Shown: piece by piece, positions 2,330 through 53,700 of the stretch | Layout: the number at the start of each line of letters is the position of its first letter | Position numbering within the stretch: the stretch's first letter is position 1 | Origin: Apostichopus japonicus | Lineage: Eukaryota; Echinodermata; Holothuroidea; Aspidochirotida; Stichopodidae | DNA length: 64,000 nucleotides | Assembly: GCF_037975245.1 (NCBI RefSeq) | Contig: NC_092583.1 | Coordinates: forward strand, 14,423,264 to 14,487,263 | Reading direction: 5' to 3' | Made by a program: the position numbers and the translations under genes | Notes under the pieces: generated by a model | Databases searched by the model: none | What the model saw: only the letters and a program-made list of their open reading frames with translations | What the model was told of the DNA's origin: nothing

Positions 2330-6050
<3,721 letters not shown>

Positions 6051-28400: not shown

Positions 28401-31400
28401 GTCGCCAAAGTTTATATGACAGGAACTTGAACAAATCTGTGAAGATCTTAAGGTCACTTTCCCAGAGATCCATCCTTACCCATACCCTGGGCCCCCATAC
28501 TTGACCCTGGGTCCTTTGGCTGTGCCCCCCCTGTCCCTCCCATTAAATCATCAGGCCCATTCATAGCTGACAGCTTGAATCAAAATATCGTAGCTGCAAT
28601 AGTTAACAAGCCTAAACTACTTTGCAAAAGAAGCAGGGCTGAAGTAGCTATTTGGTCTCATAAGTAGAGCTTGTTGGACAAGAGTTTTATAGACTTCAAA
28701 ATTTCTCCAGCAACTTGATTGAATCTGGTGAAATGTGGCATATGATTACTAAAGGCAATAAGCTGCTCTAAGTATGCATTGTGTATTCTTCCATTGCACA
28801 GGGTCAACATGAGTCAGTTTTAGAAGCCTTGAATTTCGCTAAAGATGTCATCATCGGGAAATTTCAATCAGCAAAGAAGGATAACGACTTTGTCTATCAC
28901 GAAAAGGTGCCAGATGTGGACAGTTTACCCGAAATCAAAGGTAAAATTTAATTTATAGAATGGAATAAACCCGCTTTATGGAAGATGTGTCTACCATGGA
29001 TATTGAAAGGACTGATGTATGAATTGAAGGATTTTGCAAAAGTTAAGAAAATGCCAGCATACAATATGATGTGAACACCTGGTTCTTCTTCAGCATTCTA
29101 TCAACCCCTGATTAACTGTGCTGTACACAAGATAGAACTCTCCAGTGGCCCAAATCCCTGGCCAACTGGGGCCATGGACACTGATGAATGGTTTAGTAGG
29201 CTAAAAATGCTGGCCCACTAGTCTGTGGACACAGATGCACTGCTGGTTGGGCCTACCAATGAAGATTATCTTTGGTTAGGGGAGAAACAGAGTCTGAATT
29301 AGCCCTAACTGCTGCAATCCTTCTTAACCTTTTCATTTTAGCATCAGGAATGTATTCGAGAATGTATTCGAGAAAGTTTTTTGCTTGGTAGTGTAAAGAA
29401 GAGAAATAAACTGTTGTGTTTAGACCACAAGGAAATGAAAGAGACAAATAAATACTGGATCTCCATACCTTCCTTTCTGACTCACAACATGAAAATCACT
29501 GAATGACTGAAAGATATTCACTGAATTCTGACTCTCAAAATGTATTTATATATATATTGTTATTTGATGCTTCGGACAGAGAAACCATCTTCTTCCATAA
29601 GTAGGTGTTAACTTGATTGCTGTTGTATTTCCCTTTAAGTCCTTTCACTGCACCAACTGATATCTTCTGGCCTTCCTTTCTTTCAGGTGCTTCTTTGGTC
29701 AAAGCTCTCGTCTTTCAACCGTACGATGAGAGTGTCGCAGGACCCGATGTGTTTCGCAAACTCGTCCCTATGGAGGCTCACGAAGCTTCATCTATGTACA
29801 GCGAGGAAAAAGCCAAATTGCTGCGAAAAGTCGCCGGGGAGATTGAAGAGAAGGATGGTGAATTGGAGTGAGTAAATGGATATCCAATGAATATTCAGAC
29901 ATTTACAAGCTTCCAAAATGATTATATTTCTACAAATTATCTTAAATAATAAGGTCAGCAATATTTGTGATGATATAAATCAAACTTGTAAGTGTTTCTT
30001 TTATTGCAATTATAGGTTCGGAAAAATAAATTCAATTCTTTTAAGTACCGAAGGGTTTTAATTCACAGCAGATCTGAGTTACCAAACTAAATCAGGTGTA
30101 AGACTGGATCTGTTTCTAAATTATTTTGAGGTTTCTGGTCCATTGAAGGTAACCTGCATTGGGCTAAAGCTTATCCTTTAGACAAATTTGAGAAAATATC
30201 TCCTATGAAGAGTAAACTTACTTGCCTAGTACAACAATCCATTGGCAGTAAAGGTTCTAAAAGTAATAAACTTTTGGTGTTTTGATTTCCATCAGGACCA
30301 TTCTAGTGGCAAACTGACAAAGTTGCAAAAATGCAAAACAAGAAGAACAAATTGCCAGGTTACTTTGTAAAGTGAGCGTATGGATGGCACTGAACTGTCG
30401 AATAGATGCTGGCTGGCTTTAAGTTATTGTTGTTGCTAGATTGAAGCTAGAATCGTGAGACTTCATGTAGAAAAGACAAAAGCTACACTGTATTATCAGA
30501 AAGTGGGGATGGTCATCGCGTCCATGGATATATACGGATATGTGTCCGTAGGAATGGTGTACATTTCTGTGTCATCGGTTACATTTACATTGTGAGTAAA
30601 GAATAACAGTGAGGGTGTTCATTAGATGCTTTGTATTTACTTTATGTGGACATGTAACAATGAAACCATTGTTACAATGAAACCATTGTTCACAGTAAAG
30701 TTAGTAAACACCCAGTGATATGTAATAACAGTGAGGGTACTAGATACGTTTAGTCCTGTGGATTTTTTTGTGCCCAGTATCAGCCCTGTATCTGCAACAT
30801 TTCATCTTGTTTCTTAATTATTCAGGCAGTACATGAGCGCTTTACAAGTGGAACAGCTGAAACTAGGAGATGAAGAACCAGAGAGATTACCGCAAATATT
30901 ACTAGAGGTTTGTGCTGCAATCAGCGTCAAAGAGGAACCAATAAAGACATTAGTCACTTCTATGCAAGGTGAATTAATTTCTTTGTCACTTTCTTTCCAC
31001 TGTTTAAAATAACCATGTGTAAAAGTAAGTTGGGCTGACGTTTAGATCCTAGCAGGATCCTCTTCAGAGGCTAAATGAAAAGTAAAAGTAACAGAAGGGA
31101 CAAAAACATGCACAAAATACAGACAGGTTAATGAGCATGGTGAACACAATGAGATAGATGTAAGGGGATTAGTAAACAAGGAATGGAGAGAAGAAAGCAA
31201 CAGGGGAAGAGGAGATGTAGGAGATAAACAGTGGAGGGACAAAGAGAGGATTAAGGGAATGGGGTAGGGAAAAATAATCAGGGTCAATGTTTTACTTGAC
31301 TCACCCTATCAGCAAATACCAAGACGTTTAGCCTACCGTATTTATCCCTTCAATGAATATATCGGCACTCAGCAAGAAAAGTTATTACTGAAGTTGTTAC

Positions 31401-34400
31401 CTCACAAATAAAAGGTCTGAAATGAGAAGAACCTTTTCCAGAGTGCAAAAAATTTGCCGTTTGGCTAAAGGGTAAAAAAAATGCTGGCACCATGTTTACA
31501 AATATTATCATTAAGACTGGTAAGCTTAAGAACAAATCTAACCTGGTGCCCTTTTAATTTGTTTAATTCAAATTGGTTGTTCTGGAAGTCGTTGTCCGTG
31601 CATTTTTTAATACTTTTTTTATTTATATTTTATGATTCTTCAATAGATTTATCGACAGTGGTACTGGATGTGGATAGTTCACTAACAGATATTGCTGACA
31701 TTCTGGAAGAGGAAGAAAAAACTGAGAAACAATTTCAGGTTTGCATCTTATTAATTCTCGACTATTATTTTAACAGCCTCTCTTGAATCGTTTTCCTTTC
31801 ATTGAGACATTTTAACCCACTCCTCGATGATGTCTTGGAGTAATTTTGAGGTTCAGAACCGCCAGGAAAGAAAGTATTTTTGAAAAAAAAGTTTGGACAA
31901 TCTTGGGCCTATTGGAGAATCAGATGTAATACCGGTGACCTGTGTATAAACAGGTTGGTTTTGTAGGACAGGTCTAAAAGGGCAATTTACATTTTTGAAA
32001 AAGTAGTGTCTGGCTTGATCAGCTGATCGAAGAATTAATTGATGAACCAATATTTTAATACATAAACACAGGTGGTTTAATACATTTTCAGCTCTGATAT
32101 GCTTGAAACAGATGCTATATTTTAGTATGGTGTGTGGATAATCAGATTATAAGAGATTATTTACTAATATTGGGAATATGTAATCACCGGATATCTGGTC
32201 CGGCCAGATAATCTGGAATTACACAGCTTCATCTGAATCTGAATTTGTATTCGATTCATCCCTCATTAAAAAGTTCTCTTACATTAAACAGTTATTAACA
32301 GCCAGGCTCACTTTCATTGTAGTGTTGCCTAGCCTTAGTCATCTATGTATACAAGAATCAGGTAGAAGTTGTCATTGTCAATAGACATTTAGGCAAGCTA
32401 TGGACTAATTGCAACTACAAGGGCGTTGTGGTCAAGTGGTTAAGGCAGTGGACTTGTGATCTAAGGATTACAGGTTCAAGCCCTGGCCAGATCATTGCGT
32501 TGTGTCCATGGGCAAGGCACTTTATCTCCATTGCCTCTCTTCACCCAGGTGTATAATTGGGGACTTGCGAGGTGACTTGTAAATATAGTTGCGTGCGCCG
32601 GTTTGTGGCTGCACCCTATGGGAAGTCCCCCAGGGGACATGTGGTGCACTGTGGTGCCCCAGGAGAGATTTGTTTGAATTGTACACACTTTGGTGTGTAG
32701 GTGTGACAAGTTACCAATGACTAGGGTTAATTACAGCACGGCGAGACTTTATTGAGCTATATAAGAGCTGTTAATTATGATGATTATTATTTCCTGTTCG
32801 GAATAAATGAAAAACTTGATAGGCATTACAGAGATCATTGTGTATCTGTTCAAGAATTCTAATAGAGTTATGAAAGACATCCCGCTACCACAAACAGCTG
32901 GGTACCAGCAGAGTTGTGGTACAAGTACAACGTAATGGGTACGAGTATAATTCCACCTGGTAGGGAATATGAGTAAGATTAGAAGGCTCTAGTCATGAGT
33001 ACAAGAACTTCATTTTGTACAAGATTTCCAAAATGCCCATATTACCAGTCGGAGTACCAATGGACAAGGTAGAGTATCAGAACTGGTGGTACAATTTGAG
33101 TACAGACTCACCACAAGTCAGAGTACCAGCCTGTCAATGCTAGGATGATTATTTCCGGATTACACCAGATTTGCACTTCTGTCGAACTTTCACAGAAGGA
33201 TTTCGGTCCACGGTCCGCAAGAAACTATGACGAGATTAAGAAGGATCTGACCAAATGTAAAGAACTTCATTCCAAAGCCAGCCAGTCCAACACAGAGCTG
33301 AGGAAAGCCATGGGTACACATATGGAGAATATCAAGATCCTAGCATGCCCAATAGAAGAGATACAAGCTGCCCTGCCGTCTCTAAGAGCTGCAGAATGTA
33401 AGTCATCCCTTTAGTGAGACATCATCTGCCATTTGTGGTGATGTTATCTCCTCCAAATCCCAGGCATTTCTGGGAATCCTCAGTTAGCTCAAACTGCAAT
33501 TTGTGACATTAAAATGGGGAGCATAATATTGCTTTTCTAATTCATTTTCATTTGATGGAAAATATCTAGAATGGATGTTGATTTGACTACCTGTGCACTT
33601 TGAATATAATCTGCTATAATTGATCAGATGTTTGTATTTTATCGTCTTACTCTGTAGCGTCTGTTGATAAAGATGCCGAGGCGAACCTGAAGAGGCTACT
33701 GGTAAAAGTTGATGAGATGAAGAAACAAAGGAAAGAGCTGGAACAGCAGCTGAGGGAAAGCATACAGAAAGATGATGTTACAAATACTATTGCGACCCAA
33801 CAACAAGGGAACCTACAGGTATGTGACCTTTGACCTCTCATGTCCAAATTACTTGTAGTACAAAGGATGACCCACTAACAGGAAAGCTTATGGAATGGTT
33901 ATCTTATGTCTCTCAAGGTACCTCATGTCCAAGTTACCTCTCATGTCCAAGTACAAGGGTGACCCACTAACAGGAAAGCTTATGGAATGGTAACCTCATG
34001 TCTCTCAAGGTACCTCATGTCTCTAAAGGTACATCATGTCCAAGTTACCTCTCATGTTTAAGTACAAGGGTGACCCTCTCATGTTTTAGTACAAGGGTGA
34101 CCCACTAACAGGAAAGCTTATGGAATGGTAACCTCATGTCTCTCAAGGTACCTCATGTCTCTCAAGGTACCTCATGTCTCTCAAGGTACCTCATGTCTAA
34201 GTTACCTCTCATGTCCAAGTACAAGGGTGACCCTCTAACAGGAAAGCTTATGGAATGGTAACATTATGTCTCTCAAGGTACCTCATGTCCAAGTTACCTC
34301 TCATGTCCAAGTACAAGGGTGACCCACTAATAGGAAAGCTTATGGAATGGTTACATTATGTCGCACCAGGTACCTCATGTCCAAGTTACCTCTCACCTCC

Positions 34401-37400
34401 AAGTACAAGTGTGCAACATGAATTGCTACTCATGTCACAGAATTTTAACCGTTCATGTTATAGCAATTAATTTCTCTTATTATTACTAAAACCCCCCAAA
34501 AATTTTCCATCTCCATTTCCTGCACCACCAGGCATTCTTTCAGCAACAGCTTGAGAAACACTCACCGCTGGTCACCTACCTATCACAGAATTTAGGAGCT
34601 CAAGATAACATCCTGCGAGCCCTAACAGACGCTAATGCATCCTACGCTGATTCTAGGAAAGTCACCTCAGACACAAAGCAAAAGTAAGTTTACAAAAGTC
34701 TGATTATGAAAAACCTTTCTAGACTATTTGGAAATAATTTGGTCTGAGATTTTTTATCCTGCTAGGATCTTCTTCAAATGGACACAGTTTGCCTTTGAAG
34801 AAAAAATGTCAAAAAAATGTCAGGCTGTTTAATTTGTACATTTTCCCTACACAGGCTATTTTGTAGTACTTGGGCAGTTTGTTAAAAAAAATTCTCTTTT
34901 GAGATATTTTGTGTGTTACCGTGTTACTAACAACAGCTAGTTTTGATTGAACAGAGTTTTTCTCCTCGTGTGTAAAATATCTTATCACAAAACATTTCAT
35001 TGTTATATTAGCACCAATTTTGAGTGAAGTGCATCGGTATTGGCTAAACATTTCCTGCATGTTCTAATCTGCCAGGTAATTAATTCAATCAGACATTGGG
35101 AGGGTTAACTTGTGAACCCTGTATGTTTGAGCATTAGTGACCATTTTTAGACTGTCTAGCATATTTTGGGCCAGTATTAATTATCTTTGATGCATGAAGT
35201 AAGTCTATACCTTGTCTACATTAAGATAAGTTACATCGCCTAGACCTGCATCAGATTCTTTGCAGACAAACTTTATCCTAAATTATGAAACATCCAAGTT
35301 GAAATACTTGTCATGAATAGTAACCCAAATTAGCAATATGTATGTGCATTAAGTTTTAAGTTTGCTGAATTTGCATAAATTTTTGTTAAAGTAAATATTG
35401 TATGAACATGATCTAAATAAAAATAGATGTGTTACATGATAATTTCTTCCATTCTGAAGAGTTCGCAGATGAATTGAATCACAAAACTGACCAAATCATC
35501 TAAAGTTTTTCAAGTATTATTGACTTCAGCCACAGCAATATAAATATTTATTATCAATGGCCAAAGTTTATATGCCCTGAGAGCAGAATTTGAATATTAA
35601 CATTCCTGTGGTCTAAAGAGAAGGCTAGTATGTAAATGATCCGAGTAAAGTGTAGAAATTTAACGTAATAATTTCCTTTTTACATTTAATTTCTGTCCTC
35701 CCATGAATATTCACTCTTTTGTTTATTTTGCAATGTCATTCCTTCAGGAGGGAAGACAAAATACAAGAGCTAATTACATCCTACACAGTTTACGATGATT
35801 TGATCGCCAAGTCTCTGAAAGGGATTGACTTTTACAAGAAACTGGAGGGCACCGTTACAAAGCTCTTGGCAAAGACGAAGGAATTAGTCGAGGGTTCTCA
35901 AAAAGAACGCAGTAAGAAGATCAGTACCTTAAGAGGTAGGTCGACATTGTCTTCACCAATATTTTGTTTTTATTGAAATCAACGGGAAGAACTATTCTGA
36001 ATGTAATTAAAGAAGATTTGTGGTGATGATAAGAAGGGAGTTTTGCTAACAGCATCTGGCTGTTGTTCCAACATGTAGCCGTTTCTCGAATAGACTTGAG
36101 ACCAAAAAAAAGACTGAAAATGATTAAATTTGTGAAATTAAGATCACAAAACTTCTCTAATGACTTGATTATGGATGCAGCATTTTAATTATACATTGTG
36201 TAGTACCATTGTCAATTTTCTACAGCAGATGTGCAGAAAATAATGTTTTAAAAAAGACATGTAATGCACATTATGGAGACTTTGTACGTTATTTGGAGAA
36301 AAACTAGCTTGATTGGAAATAGTTATAGTATTTTAAAGATAGTCAGCAACAAAAGACTTGTCATGCATATTCATGTATCTATGAGTCATATCAGCCAATC
36401 ATGTCTCCTCTTATCTTATTCCATCTATCACACTGTTTGAAACATATATGGACTGTTTAGAACACTAGCTCATTTGCCTTTGGAAAAATTTGAGCTATGA
36501 AGTAACTGTGTTTCCCCTAGTAACAATTAAAAAAAAAAAAAAAAAATCAAAATTATTCGCTCAAAAGAATGTTATCTTGTTTTAAAGTCCTTAAGATGAT
36601 TGAGCTTATAAATACTATTTAAGGCAACATGTCAAAAAGATAAGCTGCAGCAGCTGCAAACTACCCTGCAGCAAAGCTGCATCAATATCAAACAATAGAG
36701 ATTATCTCGGCAGACCAGCTGGGCCTATTGTGTGAAACTGCAGAGAACAAAATATCTCTGACACATCATGGATGTACGATTAGCCGTGCCCCTCGGCATC
36801 CTACTTTTGACACAATCGCCTTATTTGTATTAAACAGTATGCCTCATATTACCTTGAATTGGTATGAATTAGTGAATCCTCCTATTGTCGTTATTTAAAT
36901 TTCAGCTCCCCAGAGACCATTTGCACCAAAACCAGTTGCTCCAGGTCCTGAGGTACCACAGGGTCCAAAATTATCAGACTTCTGGAAACCTAAATCATCT
37001 CCAGATAGGAAAAGGGAAAGAAAAGACATGACTTCCACCCTTCCAGGTACTCCATCTGGGTACATGGTATCTGCTAGCACTGGAGTACCAAGCTCAATGG
37101 GTCAAGGACAAGGCCCTTTACCCTCGCTAGTACCCATGCAGTATGGTCATATTCCTTCACAAGCAGGGCCAGTGGCTTCTCAAACTCCTCAGATGCCACC
37201 CGTCTCAAGTCATTTGCCGAATCCTCAATTACCGCATTCAGCTCCCAATGTCATGCATACCATGCAGCCGACGTCATTACCACACGAGAACCTGACTGGT
37301 GCAACTCATGGAAACAGACCCCCGCAGATCCCAACTGGACATCAAGTATTGCCCAGTTCGATGAATGCGCCTCAACAACACCCAGCAGCGGCCATGCAGA

Positions 37401-43400: not shown

Positions 43401-46400
43401 AAGAGATTGTCAACTTTAGTGTAGCAGGTATTGGCTTCAGTGTGTAATCCAATGGTCAGAATGAGTAGGAACTAGCATTTTTGTTGTTGTAAATCTGTGA
43501 TATCATAGTACCGCTAGGACCTAAACCCAATAGCTTTCTCTACTTTTGTCATTTTTTAATCTATTTTCAAGGTAGAATGTTAAAAGTGTTAAATATACTG
43601 AAATCAATGCCATCATTAAGTCTTGTTCAAGAAACTTGAATATTCAAGATTCAGCATAAATTGCAAATCCCATCTTCATACCAGAAAATAAATATTTTAC
43701 TAAAGAAAGAAAATAAAAACCTTAAGAATTTAAAGCAGATGTGGCTCGATGATGTCATATTTAGACTTGATCAAGCCTTCAGCCTGGTGTAGGAAAGTAC
43801 AGTAAATGTACTGTATGATATCTTCCAAGTGGAAAAGATTCTTCCTAGTTACCTCTATCACATAGATGAATAATGATGATCGGGTTTTGTGTTTCCTTCA
43901 ATTCTATTTTTGGTGATGAAAAAGCTGGTAATTTTATTTTATTCACAAGTCCTTTATGAAAGTGTATCAAAGAAGAAATAAAGAGAGGACAACCATTCAG
44001 TAAATTTTCGTTCGAATAATAAATAAACTCTATTGAAGCAGATTACAAGTAATTCTAAATTAGCTTAATTTGCTCAAACTATCAAGAAGCTTTAAAAAAG
44101 TGGATGTTTATCGTTGGGAGATTCTACTAAACTTGCAGGACATAGGCATATTTATACCATTTTGTAGAAATTTGTGCAATTATTGTTATTATAGTTTTTC
44201 CATGATTTTTAATTATGTTCCTGATTTGTGTTCAAAGGCTCATTCATTTTTTGCTAATCTTCAATGTTTTTTTATATTCGTCACTAGTTTCCTTTGTACA
44301 TAATATTTCGTCTATGTTCGTCTCAGTTATTCGTCAGCACGTCTCCAAGTTCCATTTAGTATTTACTGTGACTAGTGTTACTTTGTTTTTTTTTTCGTTT
44401 TTTAACCATTCTTTAGGGTACCAGTGAGTTTCACCAGTACTGGCCTTCAGAGAGGGGACAATCTCAACGTCACGGGGCGTTCTCTGTGACCCTTCGAAGC
44501 TCTAAAAATACAGAGTTTCACATTGAGAGGTTTCTGCAGTTAAGACACGTACCGACCAAGCAAGTCCGAACTGTTCTTCATATGCAGTTCACAGCTTGGC
44601 CAGAATTGTAAGATTTTTTTGGTGATTAATCTGTTGCTTTCCTAATGAAATAAGCTGCAGTTTGTCATGTCTGTATCTTTGTGCACCTGTTTGTCTTTCT
44701 GTGTGTGTGTTTGTTTATATTTAAGCTCACTAAACTCCAGATGTGAATATTAAGCAATAGTAAAGGAGACTAAGAAGTTTACCAAGGTTGGCAGTCATGC
44801 AAATGATTGGTCACATATTTTAAGTTTTGAAATTGTTGAGACGTGACATAAAAATTACTCACATTTGAGCACATTGGACTGGTTTTGTCTACATTTTTTT
44901 TTTTTTAACAGTCACAATTTCTGAAATATAAATGAAACCCCTTTATCTTACACAATTAGTAAGATTTTAAAAGTAGAATTCATTTTATGAAGTTTTTTCA
45001 TGAAACAATAACTTCATCAGAAAAGATAAGTTTGTGATTGGTCAGATATTAACAAAGCTTAAGTGCAAATTTACAGACAACAAAAGAAAATAAAAATTAA
45101 TAGTTGGATGCAAGTATTCAGGCTGGAAAGGGGTTTCTGATGGCTGAAGTTGAATGATTAAGCAAAGTTGCTAAAATTTTCTGAATCTTTTGGCAAAAAA
45201 CCCCATCCTCATAACATTTTGTATTGCAAAGATATGAATTTTTCAATTTTGTTGTGATATTTTGTTAATGCATCAGGCAACATCAGAATGGATGGTATCT
45301 CTCAGTCACTTTGGCTGAAAATATCTTTGACCTTTTTAATAATATTTTTAAAATCTTTTATTCGAAGAGGAAAAGAATATTTCTACCAAAAAGATTTAGG
45401 TCAAAGTTCTCAGTACAGAGAACATTGACAGACTCACAAATATTCCAAATATATCAGGTTTCAAAGACAAAGCAAATAATAAATTATAATATCCTAAGTA
45501 AAGCTTCCAAAGAGGATTTGCCCAGATGACATCACAGACCCCCCCCCTCCCCCTACTTTGATCCAACTTTCCGGAGTAGTTGAAGGTTAAACTAGTTAAA
45601 ATTAAGTTACATTCAAGCAACCAAATCTGATAAGAAATTGAGTTGGGGTTTCAACTTGCAGAGTGAAATACTTTCCTCTTCAATAAGAGTTATACATTGT
45701 TTGTCACTAGAAAATCTTATAAATTAATTTAAAAAAGAGCAGATATTAAAGTCATTAGCCACATCAGACGACAGTTTACTTGATAGCACGTCATAAGTTC
45801 TTTCAAAGAAAGTGCATTTTGATTTTGAGGTAAACTACCAGTATTTTGTGTAGTTTGAGATTTATAGTGTTAACATGACCACATAACCTAAATTTTGCTG
45901 ATTTTATTATTGTGATGATATCTTCCAATCTGTTGCAGTGGTATACCTGAGAAAGCCTCAGACCTTCTACAGTTTGTCAGTCAAGTCCAGAATTATCACC
46001 TTCAACAGAAGCAACTCACTCTACCTATAGTGGTCCACTGCAGGTAATAAACCATTTACTGAACGTTGACCCACTTTATCTATAGCGGGCCACTGCAGGT
46101 AATCTACCATGTACAAATTGATGACCCACTTTATCTATAGTGGTCCACTGCAGGTACTAAACCATTTACTGAAAGTTGACCCACTTTATCCATAGCGGGC
46201 CACTGCAGGTAATCTACCATGTACAAATTGATGACCCACTTTATCTAAAGTGGTCCACTGCAGGTACTAAACAATTTACTGAAAGTTGACCCACTTTATC
46301 TGTACAACTACCAGTGGTGTACAGGAAATACCATGTAGTTAGTATGACTCACTTTACCCATGGTGGTGCAGTGTAGGAAAATACCATGTAGTTAGTGTGA

Positions 46401-49400
46401 CTCACTTTACCCATGGTGGTGCACTGCAGATAATATCATACATGTAGTTTATGATGGCTCACATTACCCATGGTGGTGCAGTGTAGGAAATACCATGTAT
46501 TTATTAGGACTAACTTTACCCATGGTTGTGCAGATAATATCATACATGTAGTTTATGATGACTCACTTTACCCATGGTGGTGCAGTGTAGGAAAATACCA
46601 TGTAGTTATGATGACTCACTTTACCCATGGTGGTGCACTGCAGATAATATCATACATGTAGTTTATGATGACTCACTTTACCCATGGTGGTGCAGTGTAG
46701 GAAATACCATGTAGGCTATTATGACTACATTTGCCTACTGTGATGCATATTGGAGTGTGTTCATATGGTTGTCTATGATGGAGTAGTTTGTATAAGACAG
46801 GAATTGAAATATTTCCAAGTTTTACCTGTTGCTGCAAGGACACAAACCAACCCTCCCCCTTCTCCCTCCCTTCTGACCTCTGACTCACATTTTCATCCAT
46901 GTTGCTGTATAAATTGTCTTCCATAATATCCCATGCTTCTTCTCTTCCAGTGGTGGGATTGGCCGTACAGGTACATTCTGTACGGTGTATTCAGCAGTAC
47001 AGGACATCAATAGTGGTAGAGGCATTACAGATATACCGAAAGTGGTGAAAAATCTACGAACACAAAGGAAATGGATGGTGTCTGAAAAGGTGAGACATGC
47101 TACCTCCTTGTTCCTTTCGCTTATGATGTTCAACTTCTTCCCCCTTACACTATTAACCTATTTGCCCCACAGTACCATTCCTTGCCTGATCATCATTCTT
47201 ACTCTCTCATCCACCCTGGGCATGTATCTATCCCCCCCTCCCCTTCCCCTCCCCTCCCCCACAATACTGGTGGTGAATATTTCAATGTTCATATCAGTGT
47301 CAATGGGCAGAATCAGGGATGTAAGTCTTCCGGATTTTTACGGAAATCCGTTTTTTTTTTTAATTCCAATAAGTCTTCCGTATTTTTACGGAAATCCGTT
47401 TTTTTTTTAAATTCCAATAAAGTTCCACAAAATTGTTCGAATATCAAAGACAAAACGCGGCAAAAATGCCTGGCCCGTTGTAGCAAGCTAACTTCAATTT
47501 TCACTCATCGATCACTCAAAATACCATTTCCAGTTTCGCATCATCGCATGGCACTGTACAACATTGTGCCATGTGAATATCGTTGCGTACGTGCGAACTT
47601 CAAATCGCTATAGCTCATTTCTGTCGTTGAAAAACCTTGCCTATTCATGTTGATTGGACTGCTAATTAATATCTTCGTAACTGCTGGTGCTCGACATAAG
47701 TTTTGGAATTAACGCTTGTGATATTTGTGAGCGGCGGAAATCTACGGGATACGCATATGAAAGTCGATATTTGTGATCGCATTCGAATGTGAGACTGTTT
47801 TTTATTCCGTAGTTCGTTGCGACGTATTCGTAACTTTGAGCTAGCCTAACATAACGATAGTGTGTAAGTAGTAAGAACTAGGGGTGAGATGTGTTAGCGC
47901 TAATACTTCTGAGCTAGCCTAACATAACGATAGTGTGTAAGTAGTCAGAGCTAGGAGTAGGATGTGTTAGGACGGCATTCACCTGGGGTCTCCGAATATT
48001 TTTTCCGGTTTTTTTTGGGGGCTGCACTTACATCCCTGCAGAATGAATATAGATTCCCTCCTCTACTAAACCTGTCCCCACCTCTACCCATCACCTCCTA
48101 GACATGTCCTCTCTACCTCTCTTACATACTGGACATGTCCCCTTCTTCACACATGATATCATGAACACGTCACTCCCTGAACCAATCATGTACCGACATT
48201 TCCCATCGTCCTCATCACATGCTGGATGTGTTTCCTCTTCACCACCACATACTAGAAATGTCCTATGTATCCTAACACATACTAGAAATGTCCTATCTCT
48301 CCTAACACATACTAGAAATGTCCTGTCCCTCCTAACACATACTAGAAATGTCCTGTCCCTCCTAACACATACTAGAAATGTCCTATCTCTCCTAACTCAT
48401 ACTAGGAATGTCCTATCTCTCCTAACACATACTAGAAATGTCCTATCTCTCCTAACACATACTAGAAATGTCCTATCTCTCTTAACACATACTAGAAATG
48501 TCCTATCTCTCCTAACACATACTCGACATGTTCCTTCTTTCTCATTGGTTAAGAGACATGTCCGGTACTTCACTTCTCATCGTATGATAGGCATGTACCC
48601 CTCTTTCCTTCCACTCATCACATGCTAAATATTCCCCATCCTCCCCAATCAAGTACTATATTTTATCTTATATACAAACATGAAAATCAAGAAATGAACA
48701 AAAACTTTTTCTTTGTGTATTTTTTTTTACAACCAGGAGCAACTAAAGTTCTGCTATGAAGCTGTACTGTGCTATGCACATCAAGTTCTTGCCAAACGTA
48801 AGTAGCAGTTGCTGCCTTTTACTTTGTTTCATCTTGCATTTCTGTAAACTGTTGAAAATGATTATTTGTCAAACCTGTAATCCATCAATGCTGTCAAGTC
48901 AAGCTGTTGCTAATTTATCAAAATTTTCTCGACTCGTTAGCAAACGCAAGGGCTCAGGTTTTAAACAAAAGCATATATGTGCCTGTCTGTAAAACCTGTT
49001 TTTTTTATGAAGTCAATGTATACTTCCTTTTGAAAGGAAGTCTTTTTGTTTAATTTGTTTTGTTTTGGGTCTTTTGGGAATGGTTTTTTTTTTTTTTAGA
49101 TTAGGGGGAGATTTATTAAGTTTGGTTCTGGTAAGTTGAGATAAATATCAATCAATGAGAGAATAACTCCATATTTAATATGGATATGATTATTTGGTTG
49201 GTGATCATGTTAGAGTGATGAAAAAAAATATTACTGAGAAATAAATAAATAAATAAACAAATAAATAAATAAACAGACAGACAGACACAAACAAACACAC
49301 AAACTAGGAAGAAGAAATGAGCAAAACAGATTCTTAAACAGGAGACCTAAACAATCCCAGTTCAACAGGAAAAACTAAAAGAAGAAACAGTTCAACCTTC

Positions 49401-50704
49401 TTGCAAAAGGATTTATACTTTATTTAATAAATGAAATATTATAAAAAGCTTCTATTTCAACAAGAGAGAGAGGGAGATAGATTGACGGTTTATTGTACTC
49501 ACCGTTGTTTCTAATATAATAATAATAAATGCAAATTTATACAGCGCCATTATCCAGAGGAAACCAATGCTCAGTGGCGCTAATTGCTCAGGGAAGGCAG
49601 TCAAAAATAGATAAGTTTTGAGTCTGTTTTTGAAAATGTTAACGCTGGGTGCTGACTTGATGTGCAGTGGAAGTGAGTTGAAAAACTGTCTGTTATTCTA
49701 TCTGTTATTGTCTGAGCATGTACGCAGGACAGTCAAATATTTCTTTTCACATAGAGTGAAATTTGACGTCCCTCTTAACACTCCAGAAGTCCTACCCGTC
49801 AGCCCTGGCACTCTTGAATCTATTGACGGTCAGTGATATAGTGCAGGGAGAACACTTATTTCAGCTGTGTAGGCTTCTGAATGTGCACAGAAAAAAGGTA
49901 GACATCATATCTTTCACTTTTGTCAATTTCCCTTTAAACTTTTGATTTTTTTGTCCTTCAGGCGGTATTTTCACTAAAATGGCAGGCACCATGTCCCCAC
50001 GGCCTGCTAAGAATGCTCCGTCTAGACTCAATTCCTTTGACGTCATCATGGGAGCCGATTCCGTTCAAAGTCTACAACACAGTATCTCAAAGCTCAGCGT
50101 GAAACCGACAGAGGTCAAAGTGGACCCCTCCGGACAGGAAGAGGGTACCACTGCAGAAGGAGAAGACGGAGGAGGAGGAGGAGCTGCCTCTCTCAGTGAG
50201 GAAGTGTTTAGTACACCAGAACCTGGAAATGTTGACCCCACTGTTCCCAACCAGGAAGAGGTATCTGTAAATGTAGCGGGTAACCACGAAAGTGAACCCA
50301 ACGAGATAGAACAGATCTCAGAGCAGGATATCCAGGCATTAGCTCCAAAATCGACATCTGTCACTGAACTGCTTGCGAGTAATTTGGACGATTTTTCCGT
50401 AAATGCGCAGAGATTCGTTCCTCCCGACGTCGTGGAGTCAAACACCATCCCGCAGAGTGCGCAGCAGGCTGCCAGCGAGGTCGACAGTAGCGGTGTCTCG
50501 CAGAGTGTGCTGCCCTCTATACTGGAAGATTTGACCCCGCAAAACTTTTCAATCAAGGACGAGGAGAAACAGAAAACGAAAAAGTTTACTAAAGAAGATT
50601 TTGACAATAGGAAGAATAATCTGGGTGCACCGGAAGGTGGCTTAGGCGATCCGTTTAACTCTCTGGATCCTCTTTGGTCGATGAAAGGTCCAACGGAGAA
50701 GTGA
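22406..50704 (+). CDS. PTPN23: HD-PTP / PTPN23, Bro1-domain tyrosine-phosphatase-like protein, complete, 22 exons
   Basis: Exons: 22406-22492, 25003-25077, 25905-26032, 26435-26693, 26998-27213, 28052-28156, 28802-28940, 29687-29867, 30826-30968, 31647-31738, 33196-33397, 33658-33818, 34532-34683, 35748-35935, 36906-39859, 40590-40686, 42493-42689, 44417-44607, 45939-46043, 46951-47089, 48737-48797, 49962-50704. Phases agree throughout and give 2204 residues. Start MEAVPRM equals that of human PTPN23. Order: Bro1 domain (about 1-390; EQACILYNLGALHAVLGA, GQAQECLLEKSMQDNRKS), coiled-coil V domain (about 391-705; MEAHEASSMYSEEKAKLL), Pro/Gln-rich region (710-1694), PTP domain (1695-1957) and tail ending NSLDPLWSM. 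In the family, HD-PTP binds ESCRT-0/-I/-III and drives endosomal sorting of ubiquitinated receptors, with little phosphatase activity. The protein is longer than the human one (1636) mainly in the linker. Introns carry satellites, two SINE copies and transposons. A poly(A) signal AATAAA lies at 51368-51373; another at 53625-53630 could extend the 3' UTR. Confidence 0.97.
22903..23377. repeat. Inverted-repeat (foldback) element in HD-PTP intron 1
   Basis: AGTATTGCGAAGTTCGG at 23100-23116 is matched by its perfect 17-base reverse complement at 23361-23377. A second, slightly diverged reverse copy (GTGTCCGAACTTTCGCAGTAT) lies at 23339-23359, and another forward copy of TTCGAAGTTCGGACAC begins near 22903. 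So one motif occurs four times, two in each orientation. No target duplication is visible. It may be a foldback or decayed MITE. Confidence 0.65.
23980..24341. mobile_element. hAT-like non-autonomous element (MITE), 362 bp
   Basis: The element begins CAGTGGCGTAGG and ends CCTACGCCCTTG, imperfect inverted ends. It is flanked by a perfect 8-bp direct repeat CTTTAAAC at 23972-23979 and 24342-24349. Inside are G/C runs and two copies of a CCTTAGATGCAATTTGGTGC-like segment about 80 bp apart. It has no coding capacity. It lies in HD-PTP intron 1. Confidence 0.92.
31020..31280. repeat. Dispersed repeat fragment with GATCCTAGCAGGATC palindrome
   Basis: A GGGCTGACGTTTAGATCCTAGC start followed by AGGATCCTCTTCAGAGG resembles the edges of common invertebrate interspersed repeats. 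The core ATCCTGCTAGGATCTTCTTCA recurs at about 34758-34780 in another intron of the same gene. The class is not established. Confidence 0.4.
32421..32760 (+). mobile_element. tRNA-derived SINE, copy 1 (HD-PTP intron 10)
   Basis: The head carries a perfect RNA polymerase III A box, TGGTCAAGTGG, and a B box GGTTCAAGCCC about 40 bp on, in a tRNA-Ser/Leu-like context. A tRNA-unrelated body of about 240 bp follows and matches copy 2 at 42757. The 3' end diverges after about 32727. It is in sense orientation to HD-PTP. Confidence 0.85.
33830..34440. repeat. Complex tandem repeat in HD-PTP intron 12
   Basis: A unit of roughly 80-110 bp containing CTCATGTCCAAGT, ACAAGGGTGACCCACTAACAGG and AAAGCTTATGGAATGGTAAC is repeated about six times, with shorter reiterations of CTCTCAAGGTACCTCATGT inside it. 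It begins almost at the exon 12 donor (33819). Confidence 0.88.
36906..39859 (+). CDS. PTPN23: PTPN23 exon 15: giant Pro/Gln-rich linker exon
   Basis: A single 2954-bp exon encodes residues 710-1694, about 45% of the protein. It is low-complexity Pro, Gln, Ser and His, with an 18-residue polyglutamine tract (mixed CAG/CAA codons, 38195-38248, Q1140-Q1157). Before it lie many NQQQ/LNQQQ and PINQQ reiterations. Near the end, TKDLLSSSPEGGSPL (from about D1515) matches the DLLSSSPES segment before the PTP domain of human PTPN23. The vertebrate linker is Pro-rich and binds ESCRT and endocytic proteins; the strong Gln expansion here is a difference. The human-like start APQRPFAPKP marks the boundary with the V domain. 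Confidence 0.95.
39930..40570. repeat. Tandem repeat in HD-PTP intron 15
   Basis: A unit of about 115-125 bp (GTGGTGAACTCT, AGTGTTCTGTGTGACAGTTTG, AACTCTTTGCAGTATTCTATCAG, GAACTCTTACAAATGTTCC) is repeated three to four times with divergence and ends just before the exon 16 acceptor at 40589. Several units contain TTTGCAG, which resembles a splice acceptor. Confidence 0.85.
42757..43182 (+). mobile_element. tRNA-derived SINE, copy 2 (HD-PTP intron 17)
   Basis: It has the same head as copy 1, with A box TGGTCAAGTGG and a canonical B box GGTTCGAGCCC. The body is nearly identical through the GCCGGTTTGTGGCTGCACCC and CCCCAGGAGAGATT segments. It continues into a TGAACAAGACCCT/AACAAGGCCC repeat and an A-rich tail at 43155-43182. 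It starts about 65 bp downstream of the exon 17 donor. Confidence 0.88.
45939..46043 (+). CDS. PTPN23: PTPN23 exon 19: phosphatase-domain exon ending at the catalytic Cys
   Basis: It encodes GIPEKASDLLQFVSQVQ and onward to LPIVVHC, where Cys1890 is the nucleophile position. The intron splits the next serine codon (AG/T), so the signature HCSGGIGRTG spans exons 19 and 20. The previous exon ends in WPE (W1853-E1855), which occupies the WPD-loop position. The last 25-30 bases of this exon plus the donor are the seed of the tandem array in the next intron. Confidence 0.95.
46030..46290. repeat. 55-bp tandem array derived from the exon 19 3' end and splice donor
   Basis: The string TATAGTGGTCCACTGCAGGTA, partly inside exon 19, recurs with small changes. 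The CAG-GT junction appears at GT positions 46044 (the true donor), 46099, 46154, 46209 and 46264, an exact 55-bp period. Alternate units differ (GCGGGCCACTGCAG versus GTGGTCCACTGCAG), giving a 110-bp higher-order unit. Confidence 0.93.
46300..46720. repeat. Second tandem array in HD-PTP intron 19
   Basis: Units of about 50-60 bp carry ACTCACTTTACCCATGGTGG, then TGCA(C/G)TG(C/T)AG and ATACCATGTAGTTA. The ACTTTACC...GTGGTGCACTGCAG core is visibly related to the exon-end-derived array just upstream, suggesting that one expanding array has diverged. Confidence 0.88.
46951..47089 (+). CDS. PTPN23: PTPN23 exon 20: P-loop remainder of the phosphatase signature
   Basis: It completes HCSGGIGRTG (H1889-G1898) with the phosphate-binding Arg at 1896, followed by AVQDINSGRGITDIPK and LRTQRKWMVSEK. 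Classical active phosphatases have Ala two residues after the Cys; this gene has Gly, and human HD-PTP (from memory) has Ser. The next exon continues EQLKFCYEAV, keeping a Gln in the Q-loop position. Weak or absent catalysis is expected but not shown. Confidence 0.95.
47314..48038. mobile_element. DNA transposon-like element, 725 bp, with 13-bp perfect inverted ends
   Basis: The ends are CAGGGATGTAAGT and ACTTACATCCCTG, a perfect inverted repeat, flanked by direct repeats CAGAAT (47308-47313 and 48039-48044). Inside, a 60-bp segment containing the hairpin CGGATTTTTACGGAAATCCG is duplicated in tandem at about 47325-47425. A segment of about 78 bp (GAGCTAGCCTAACATAACGA and onward) is duplicated at 47837-47970. 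It has no transposase. It lies in HD-PTP intron 20. Confidence 0.85.
48225..48535. repeat. 30-bp minisatellite in HD-PTP intron 20
   Basis: About ten units of CACATACTAGAAATGTCCTA plus TCTCTCCTAA repeat with period 30. Because 30 is a multiple of three, one frame stays open and reads as THTRNVLSLL repeats. I read this as an artefact, because no splice signals or family support a protein. Confidence 0.93.
49500..49850. repeat. Probable interspersed repeat (ATTTATACAGCGCC type)
   Basis: The segment starts with an AATAATAATAAATGCAAATT run and TATACAGCGCCATTATCCAG, a beginning shared by a widespread class of marine-invertebrate interspersed repeats that I know in general form. Only one copy is in this window, so it cannot be confirmed internally. 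It is in HD-PTP intron 21. Confidence 0.35.
49962..50704 (+). CDS. PTPN23: PTPN23 exon 22: C-terminal tail
   Basis: It encodes the last 246 residues. DSVQSLQHSISKLSVKP corresponds to the DVPISSIQATIAKLSIRP segment of human HD-PTP. A long acidic Ser/Pro/Glu-rich (PEST-like) stretch follows. It ends in DPFNSLDPLWSMKGPTEK, matching the human DPLSLLDPLWTLNKT terminus. Conservation of both ends argues that the tail is functional, not read-through. Confidence 0.95.
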
Positions 50705-53700
50705 AGAAAAATACTGTCGTTATTAACAGAAAGGCCCAACAGAGAAGTGAACAATACTGTCGTTATTGACAGAAAGGTCCAATTGAGAAGTTATTTACAG
50801 AGCCATTTCACTTTGAGTGGATTGTGTAAAATTGACACACCTCTAGTGGAAGAGAGTATCCTGACCGTTGTACCGTATATATCTATAATGGGTTAATTGT
50901 GTGTCAAAGTTCATTTGGCCATGTCCAGGTATATTATGTTCTGTTTTTGACTTTCTGATCGTAGATACTAAAAACAAACGTTCAGGGTCATCTTGCTTGT
51001 TCCCCCCCCCCCTTTTTTTTTCTCCTCATTCTTCGTTCAATACCCTACATGCCATATGCTCCATTGTTATGAAATTTTTTTTTCTATATTCACACAATCT
51101 GTCGCAAATGCCAACTCATCATGAAGCAGGGGCAAGGGCAAGGGTTGAGGGATGAGGGGGGAAGGATGGTGGTTATGCAGGGGAGGGGGGGTGGGGTGTT
51201 GGTCTTCAGGGTTTGTAAAATGTGCATATACTGGATGAGTATATTAATACTGTTCTGAAAGGAACAATGGCATTTTTAAAGAATGAGTAAAACAGCATGT
51301 GTTTTTTAATTATTTAATTCTTGAAAGATTTTAAATATAAAAAAATATTGATCAGTTTAGTTGTTAAAATAAAAGTAAATGGCTGAAAGGAGGATATTGA
51401 ATTCAAGAACGTTATCGGAGACATTACATTGAGTTGTGGAAAAGTTTTTTTTAAATTTTATATGTTGATGAATCCTCCAAGAATCATTGTTACTATCATT
51501 GGAATGTTTGGTGTCTCATAGAAATGAAATACACAATTTATATATCACTGTATCTCATGTAAAAAAATGATTATTTTTTTGTACGCTGTACTTTGGTTGT
51601 GATTTGGTGATGTTATGGTTAGGTATGCTATATGTATATGGAAACCTGTATCAGAGCATGTAAATAATTTAAAGAAATGTTTTTGTTTTTTTGCTCAAAA
51701 TGTATTTCATCAATGCTGCGCACTAGAGTTAAGGATCTTTAGAAAAGCAGTTCCAGCTTCTATTCGAGGATTGCTTAGTTTGACTTTGCCTCTGTCCAAG
51801 TCTTATGTTTTAGAAATGAAATATGTAAGGTTGTATCTGAATGTTTGACAGTCTTATACTTTCATCTGTCTGTGTGAATGAAGGGATCATAAAGGTTTGC
51901 CTTCTTAAGAATGGTCCACTATCGGTACTCAAACATGGCACCCTAGTGGTACTCAAAAATGGCACCCTAGTGGTACTCAAGCATGGCTTCCTAGTGGTAC
52001 TCAAACATGACCCACTAATGGTGCTCAAGCATGACCTACTATTGGTGCCCAAGCTTGGCTAGCTTGTGGTACTACTAAAGGCCACCTATTCTACTCTAAC
52101 ATGGCTTCCTAGTGGTACACAAACATGGCTCCCTAGTGGTACTCAAATATAGCTCTCTATTGGTACTCTAACAGCTCTTGTGTGGTACTCAAAACATGGC
52201 TAGCCAGTGGCAATCTAGCATTGCCCATATAGTTGGTACTGAAAAACGGTTCATGAGTGGAACTCAAAACATGGCTAGCTAGTGGTACTCAAACTGCTCT
52301 ATTGTGGCACTGAAACATGGCTCACTAGTGTCACTCAAGCATTGGCCCTCTAAAGTGTGATTTTTTAAGTTGGTAAGATGCAAAGATGGTTCCATGTAAT
52401 GTTAAGCCTGTTAGATTCATAGGCAATGGAAAAGAAGGGGGAACAGAAAAAAATTGGGGGGTTGGGGGAGGGGGGAATTAGGGTACTAGACTATATGGGT
52501 ATATCAATTGTTGATTGCTTTGGTCATTTCTTTACATTGCATAAATAGCCTATATGGGTCACCGGAACAGATTGTATTCTATTTATCTTTATGGAAGGAA
52601 AGACAATGAAACAAGAAAGAATCCCAGTCAGTTACACAGAGTTATAACATGGGATAAAATTACATCCTCCATATTAAAGGAAATGTCGGTTGATGTCGCG
52701 GAATCAGTAGTATAACCAATTCAAGAAGGGTTGTGGGAATGGGAATAGGTCGAGCCGTATTTTGTTGTGTAGGAGGGGGAAGAGGGGGGACAGAGCTGAA
52801 GGAAAGAAAGATGATGGAACCATGCAGCCACCCCGCTTTGGTTTTGCTGTTGAAAAAGGCATGATGGCTGGCATACCAATGTTATGTACTTCTCTGTCGA
52901 TAAAGGAATCATTTGGTCACTTAATGTGCAATAATCCAGTTACACATACAATTATCTTTGGATATTGGAAATATTGTTTATATAATCATATCTAAACGGG
53001 GATAAACATTTTAACTTTTGTATGGCTAGTGTGTATTATCTGCTTTGTAGCCCAGTAAGGGCAGTGATCTCAATAAGCATCCAAAGATAATCAAATTCGA
53101 TTGTTTGATTTACATGTTTCTGTTTTACAAATTTGTTGATTGCTAACCATACCCACTAAACTATAAAGACGTACGGGTACCATTTTTGCCACTTGTCACT
53201 GGTTTTACCTTCCCTGCCCATCCTCACCCTCCCACTCTCCTCCATTCCAATCCTATCCCCTCATCCTGCCCTACCCCCCCCCCGCCACTGTCACCAGCCC
53301 CACCCCTTGCTTAATTGAAAAGACATTTATCTTGTTGGTTAAGCGGTCTTGCATGCAGTATTTGTGCATCTGAAGAGGATGCTACATCCACATACGTAAG
53401 ATGTGTTGAGGTATGGGCGGAGGTGGAGGGGGGGGGGGCAGTGGAGGGGTGATAGTTGGGTTGGTGCACTCTATTCCCAGCTTGCCCTCCCATTTACCCG
53501 TTCATCATATCATGTCTGTTGTTCAGTGGCCTCAATTTTACTGACGAAAGATTAGCGATTATTTGACTCAGTGTCTGCAAATAAATCGTGTAGAGTATAG
53601 CATATGCTTCAAATACCATCAAAGAATAAAGTTTGTTTGTAATTAATCAAAATGAGCGTCATTTTACGGGCTGAGTTATTTACTTAACTACGGCTTAAAT

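What the first reader, a model, noticed from the sequence alone, without database searches (positions are those of the whole stretch)
45939..46290. Splice donor and 3' end of the catalytic exon amplified into a 55-bp array of decoy donors
The last bases of HD-PTP exon 19, encoding PIVVHC, plus the intron start are copied in tandem. CAG-GT junctions fall at 46044, 46099, 46154, 46209 and 46264, spaced exactly 55 bp. Use of a decoy would add 55 bases or multiples; reading on from the true donor meets TAG within the first added unit, so any decoy use would truncate the protein right after the catalytic Cys. The array could sequester U1 snRNP, reduce full-length message or be neutral. A coding sequence seeding an intronic satellite is unusual.
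Basis: partly seen in the sequence, partly recalled or inferred. Interest (0 to 1): 0.72.

Follow-up and report, generated by a model that had tools for sequence, protein, structure and literature searches.

The report
Splice-donor minisatellite in HD-PTP intron
The end of one exon of an animal HD-PTP gene, with its splice signal, has been copied over and over into the neighbouring intron, making four look-alike splice sites that would cut the protein short if used; similar cases are known and this one is most likely a tolerated by-product of repeat growth.

Summary
CAG|GT lies at 46044 (true donor), 46099, 46154, 46209 and 46264, exactly 55 bp apart, in a PTPN23/HD-PTP gene.

The array is larger than reported: 13 units plus a degenerate one, 46014-46779. 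The inner block U1-U5 keeps the donors. U6 is a hybrid without one. The outer block U7-U13 has lost the GT in 7 of 7 units (AGGT to AGGA or AGAT). The exon-derived part is 30 nt.

Any decoy use, or intron retention, reads ...VVHCR and stops at TAA 46045, not TAG. Two decoys equal the true donor in predicted U1 pairing; two are weaker.

Pooled outer-unit differences from the exon fall mostly at third codon positions (6 of 7), inner ones do not (1 of 7; Fisher p 0.029, post hoc). This fits two rounds of seeding from the exon, but the evidence is thin.

Donor-bearing minisatellites and AGGT duplications have precedents (IFI6, fission yeast, potato): a new member of a known kind. No RNA, reads, species name or relatives were available, so splicing effects are untested; most likely neutral with at most rare unproductive splicing.

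The parts
45939..46043 (+).
46044..46045 (+). true splice donor, CAG|GTAATA, +5 is T
   Evidence: phase fits exon 46951-47089 (SGGIGRTG...)
46045..46047 (+). TAA stop met on read-through of the true donor (VVHCR*)
46023..46045 (+). 23-nt quasi-palindrome across exon end and donor (18 of 23 positions self-complementary)
   Evidence: 29 of 63,977 window 23-mers reach 18 (array copies included)
46014..46069 (+). array unit U1: 30 nt of exon plus intron start
46070..46289 (+). inner block U2-U5, four 55-bp copies as 110-bp dimers; donor copies at 46099, 46154, 46209, 46264
46290..46347 (+). U6, hybrid between inner and outer unit types, no CAGGT
   Evidence: hybrid nature read from the alignment by eye
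46348..46724 (+). outer block U7-U13, alternating C and D types; GT lost in 7 of 7 (AGGA or AGAT in place of AGGT)
46725..46779 (+). U14, degenerate last unit (38-60% identity to the others)
46951..47089 (+). next HD-PTP exon (SGGIGRTGTFC...), acceptor AG at 46949-46950

Best explanation
A tandem duplication spanning the last 30 nt of an HD-PTP exon and about 25 nt of the intron created a donor-bearing minisatellite. It grew by unequal exchange or slippage into the intron only. An older outer block came first and a younger inner block was seeded later from the exon. The authentic, exon-proximal donor is still the one used. The decoys are tolerated and at most give rare transcripts ending VVHCR*, expected to be removed by NMD. 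Shown: the array, its homology to the exon end, its block structure, the truncation on paper. Inferred: direction of growth, two rounds, use of the first donor, neutrality.
For: Each listed unit match covers the same 30 exon bases and nothing upstream in the exon. Inner dimers are 96-98% alike between repeats (U2/U4, U3/U5) and inner and outer units separate in the tree, support 0.91 for the inner group. Outer-vs-exon differences are 6 of 7 at third positions, inner 1 of 7, Fisher p 0.029. Seven of 7 outer units have lost GT and 2 of 4 inner decoys carry a weaker +4 C. Arrays of period 10 or more cover 5.9% of the window, and exon-edge overlaps (2 of 28 listed edges) match chance, 1.7-2.7.
Against: The codon-position test is small, was chosen after seeing the data, and units are not independent; for the four changes shared by the outer units it is weak (3 of 4 third-position, p 0.11; 3 of 4 synonymous, p 0.07). 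Decoys 46099 and 46209 are as strong as the true donor by U1 energy and score slightly higher by the recalled matrix, so appreciable decoy use is not excluded. No RNA and no relatives were examined, and the own-genome search did not complete.
Confidence: 0.66

Rival explanations
1. Active decoy array: the donor copies compete for U1 or are spliced at a steady rate, giving unproductive VVHCR* messages or intron retention that lowers HD-PTP output.
For: Two decoys equal the true donor in U1 energy, -8.3 kcal/mol, within the best 1.2% of 3,652 window GT sites. All four decoy products and the retained intron carry the same early stop, 51-216 nt before the decoy junction. The two weaker decoys are predicted more accessible than the true donor. 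A cryptic donor can cause intron retention in minigenes (PMC8706089, abstract and passages). IFI6 repeat units serve as donors (PMC4526556, passage).
Against: No RNA evidence. Seven of 7 outer units lost GT and 2 of 4 inner decoys are weaker. In PMC8706089 donor motifs placed at other positions did not cause retention, so the effect depends on context. The authentic donor is first and adjoins the full exon.
Confidence: 0.2
2. Structural masking: the quasi-palindromic unit lets neighbouring units pair and hides the true donor and decoys 46099 and 46209, slowing this intron's removal.
For: The inner block folds more stably than 100 shuffles, z -2.9; the outer block does not, z +1.4. The true donor is the least accessible of 12 donors scored in the gene, 0.00018; deleting the array in silico gives 0.0041.
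Against: With the array shuffled or replaced, the median is only 6-8 times higher and 3 of 30 and 2 of 30 controls are as closed as native; joining straight to the outer block leaves it closed, 0.00025. The inner minus strand folds as strongly (z -3.3), so the signal is not specific to the transcript strand. Prediction only.
Confidence: 0.06
3. Assembly artefact: true copy number is lower, or the array is absent.
For: Short tandem copies up to 98% alike are prone to misassembly (general knowledge); no reads could be seen.
Against: Units carry distinct variants in ordered types and the outer block is diverged.
Confidence: 0.05

Closest known systems
Human IFI6 (6-16, G1P3) minisatellite providing multiple splice donor sites (Turri et al. 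1995)
   Same: Repeat units of a minisatellite serve as splice donors: a passage of PMC4526556 says IFI6 isoforms use two downstream repeat units as donor sites, citing Turri et al.. The original is not held.
   Different: Recalled: the IFI6 unit is 12 bp and the array sits at an exon end. There several donors are used; here use is unknown and any use ends at TAA.
Intron gain by tandem duplication of AGGT segments (Rogers 1989; ATP2A1; fission yeast 24-bp arrays; potato RdRp)
   Same: Tandem duplicates carrying AGGT, in fission yeast several copies; in potato the duplicate crosses an intron-exon boundary (PMC4974935, abstract and introduction).
   Different: Those make a new intron. Here a donor end is multiplied inside an existing intron; its AG|GT sites have 9-10 of 16 pyrimidines upstream against 14 of 16 at the real acceptor.
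Variable internal tandem repeats changing human gene structure (PMC2812944; Zhuo et al. 2007 in its reference list)
   Same: Minisatellite-sized arrays altering exons and introns (passages).
   Different: Those are recent paralogues in segmental duplications compared with transcripts; here there is no transcript evidence.
Cryptic or decoy splice sites causing intron retention (PMC8706089)
   Same: Extra donor motif near an authentic donor, with RNA structure as the competing model.
   Different: There the decoy is a near-consensus exonic site and was assayed; here decoys are intronic, lack +5G and are untested.

Membership tests
Donor-bearing minisatellite (IFI6 type) | tandem array that includes an exon's 3' end and its donor (feature as I recall it) | tested here: met
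Donor-bearing minisatellite (IFI6 type) | several repeats carry donor motifs like the authentic one | tested here: met
   4 downstream CAG|GT copies; 2 of 4 equal in U1 energy
Donor-bearing minisatellite (IFI6 type) | repeat donors used in mRNA | not testable with these tools
   no RNA data
Intron gain by AGGT tandem duplication | duplicated segment carrying AGGT | tested here: met
Intron gain by AGGT tandem duplication | AG of a downstream copy has acceptor features | tested here: inconclusive
   only pyrimidines were counted: 9-10 of 16 at four AGs against 14 of 16 at the real acceptor; branch points and other AGs not scored
Intron gain by AGGT tandem duplication | a new intron absent from relatives | not testable with these tools
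   no animal genomes in the collections on hand
HD-PTP (PTPN23) | BRO1, ALIX-type V domain and PTP domain in order in one locus | tested here: met
   splicing of all parts into one message not shown

The most novel reading that the evidence does not exclude
The intron is a stratified fossil record of the exon: the exon has re-seeded the array at least twice, outer units preserve an earlier codon version (LTLPMVVHC), exon-derived halves are kept more alike than intron-derived halves by repeated copying, and the surviving donor copies tune HD-PTP output through unproductive splicing.
Probability: 0.1. Interest if true: 0.62.

Novelty: new member of a known kind. Interest (0 to 1): 0.36.

Why it matters
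It is a natural test of how splicing tells a true donor from near-identical copies 55 bp apart. If the outer block is an exon fossil, it also orders past exon changes and shows that coding edges can repeatedly seed intronic minisatellites without destroying a gene.

Tried and rejected
A search of the window's own genome for further copies did not complete, so whether the unit occurs elsewhere in the genome is unknown. Within the window, outside this intron, only two 20-base matches of the array at one place (E 0.14) were found. The viral, prokaryote, phage and plasmid collections were not scanned, as they are not expected to hold relatives of an animal gene.

A second array in the same gene (33820-34413), starting just after donor 33819, was tested as a second donor-derived case: homology of its unit to the donor region is not above shuffles (206 of 500 reach it). 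Rejected.

A structured-RNA reading: no Rfam match at E up to 0.1 in 45900-47100, both strands. Structural masking of the donor: controls too close.

Loss of GT in 7 of 7 outer units as selection against decoys: considered. The losses trace to one change in each of two unit types, so they count as about two events and prove little.

A coding role of the array: + strand frames run through outer units (up to 68 aa stop to stop); no homology was sought; not pursued.

Full report
Observation. The array goes on past 46290: TRF reports a second array, 46326-46726, with periods near 53 and 110. Aligning all units gives U1-U13 plus a degenerate U14, 46015-46779. U1-U5 form an inner block with the donor intact. 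U6 is a hybrid without CAGGT. U7-U13 alternate between two types, C (U7, U9, U11, U13) and D (U8, U10, U12), and 7 of 7 lack the GT (AGGA or AGAT). Blastn of the exon against the window (E up to 1) finds 9 matches besides itself, all in this intron and all to the same 30 exon bases 46014-46043 (E 2.7e-6 to 0.017), and none to the rest of the exon.

Gene. On the + strand BRO1 (26-30 kb), ALIX V domain (33-35 kb) and Y_phosphatase matches (42.5 kb and 46.9-47.1 kb) follow in order. The best PDB matches to the BRO1 and V-domain exons are PTPN23 chains (that they are human is recalled). The exon 45939-46043 gave no Pfam match alone; joined to 46951-47089 it reads GIPEKASDLLQF...LTLPIVVHCSGGIGRTGTFC...WMVSEK and aligns along its length with PTPs, best with receptor PTPs; no PTPN23 chain is among the 60 shown of 239. 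The number 'exon 19' was not verified.

Consequence on paper. Using any of the four decoys adds 55, 110, 165 or 220 nt. In each case, and on intron retention, the frame reads ...PIVVHCR and stops at TAA 46045-46047, 51-216 nt before the decoy junction. At least one more exon junction lies downstream (donor 47090), so NMD is expected (general knowledge of the 50-55 nt rule; not tested).

Donor strength. Predicted U1 pairing is -8.3 kcal/mol for the true donor and for decoys 46099 and 46209, and -7.3 for 46154 and 46264. Of 13 exon cores I scored the likely donors of 12 (the core at 29680 gave none in reach and was dropped); apart from 46044 I took the best-scoring GT near the exon end, a choice that favours +5G. 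Nine of the other 11 have G at +5 and this one does not. By matrix score it is at the low end; by U1 energy it is fourth of 12. So two decoys cannot be told from the true site by the core motif.

History of the array. Within the exon-derived 29 nt compared codon by codon, the pooled differences between the exon and outer units U7, U8, U9, U11, U12 and U13 are CTA>TTA plus six third-position changes (ACT>ACA, CCT>CCC, ATA>ATG, GTC>GTG, CAC>CAG, TGC>TGT). Those between the exon and inner units U2-U5 are mostly at first and second positions (1 of 7 at third). Fisher p is 0.029. Four changes are shared by those outer units: three are synonymous and one is I/M; three or more synonymous of four has p 0.07, three or more at third position of four p 0.11. 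The simplest reading is that the outer block copies an older exon (TTA CCC ATG GTG GTG) that then changed under coding constraint, and that the inner block was seeded later from the newer exon. The test was devised after seeing the alignment, the numbers are small and units are not independent. U6 (hybrid), U10 (with a deletion) and U14 (degenerate) were not in the codon table; U10 read by eye adds two third-position changes.

An unexplained pattern. Exon-derived halves are more alike than intron-derived halves between inner types A (U3, U5) and B (U2, U4), 90% against 63%, and between outer types C and D, 92% against 66%. B against C shows no such gap (70% against 71%), nor does the exon unit against the inner units (84% against 80%); inner against outer as a whole is 73% against 62% (U6 and U14 left out). 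For the six single pairs tested Fisher p is 0.017 (U2/U3), 0.06 (U1/U12), 0.07 (U3/U12), 0.12 (U11/U12), 0.37 (U2/U12) and 1.0 (U1/U3). Local conversion or repeated copying from the exon could give this; so could misalignment of gapped AT-rich halves.

Is it surprising that an array overlaps an exon edge? Merged arrays of period 10 or more cover 5.9% of the window and 9.5% of the gene region 24900-50900. Of 28 approximate edges that I listed (14 exons, not all exons of the gene; the last, 49966-50703, was not shown to be an HD-PTP exon), 2 lie in arrays, 46043 and the coding end near 50703; 1.7 and 2.7 are expected at random placement over window and gene region. So it is not.

Structure. The exon end and donor form a quasi-palindrome (46023-46045, 18 of 23; 29 of 63,977 window 23-mers reach this, array copies included). 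The inner block folds more stably than 100 shuffles (z -2.9), its minus strand too (z -3.3), the outer block does not (z +1.4). The true donor and decoys 46099 and 46209 are predicted closed, the weaker decoys 46154 and 46264 more open. The true donor is the least accessible of the 12 donors, 0.00018; with the array deleted it is 0.0041, with only the inner block deleted 0.00025; with the array shuffled or replaced 3 of 30 and 2 of 30 controls are as closed. I give masking little weight. Rfam shows nothing up to E 0.1.

Known cases. [quoted passage not shown] PMC2572611 has that paper in its reference list and PMC3618361 cites it for minisatellites interfering with splicing. The original is not held. 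The introduction of PMC4974935 (read) describes the AGGT tandem duplication model, ATP2A1 and fission-yeast genes with multiple copies of a 24-bp AGGT segment; its own case crosses an intron-exon boundary (abstract). PMC2812944 (passages) treats minisatellites changing human gene structure. PMC8706089 (abstract and passages) shows by minigenes that a cryptic donor can cause intron retention, depending on its position. Hence 'new member of a known kind'. Two further literature searches, on VNTR at exon-intron boundaries and on tandem-duplication introns with minisatellites, returned 0 papers; I claim no absence from print.

Limits. No relatives, species name, reads or RNA were available; the own-genome search did not complete. 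All functional statements are inference.

Noticed in passing
50683-50791: A 43-bp array (2.5 copies) spans the last codons (...KGPTEK) and TGA stop of the open frame 49946-50701 and runs on past the stop: a second coding edge caught in a tandem array. Whether the frame is an HD-PTP exon was not tested.
   Followed up: partly
33820-34413: An array of about 92-bp units with 19-bp subrepeats starts about 10 nt after HD-PTP donor 33819; its units carry AAGGTACC, but homology to the donor is not above shuffles.
   Followed up: yes
46033-46043 and 46951-46972: PTP motif 9 reads VHCSGGIGRTG: residue C+2 is Gly, neither the Ala of other PTPs nor the Ser that inactivates human HD-PTP (S1394, PMC2661844 passages).
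   Followed up: partly
46015-46724: Exon-derived halves of units are more alike than intron-derived halves between the two unit types within both the inner and the outer block.
   Followed up: partly
2707-3002: Long TCA trinucleotide array, 98 copies.
   Followed up: no
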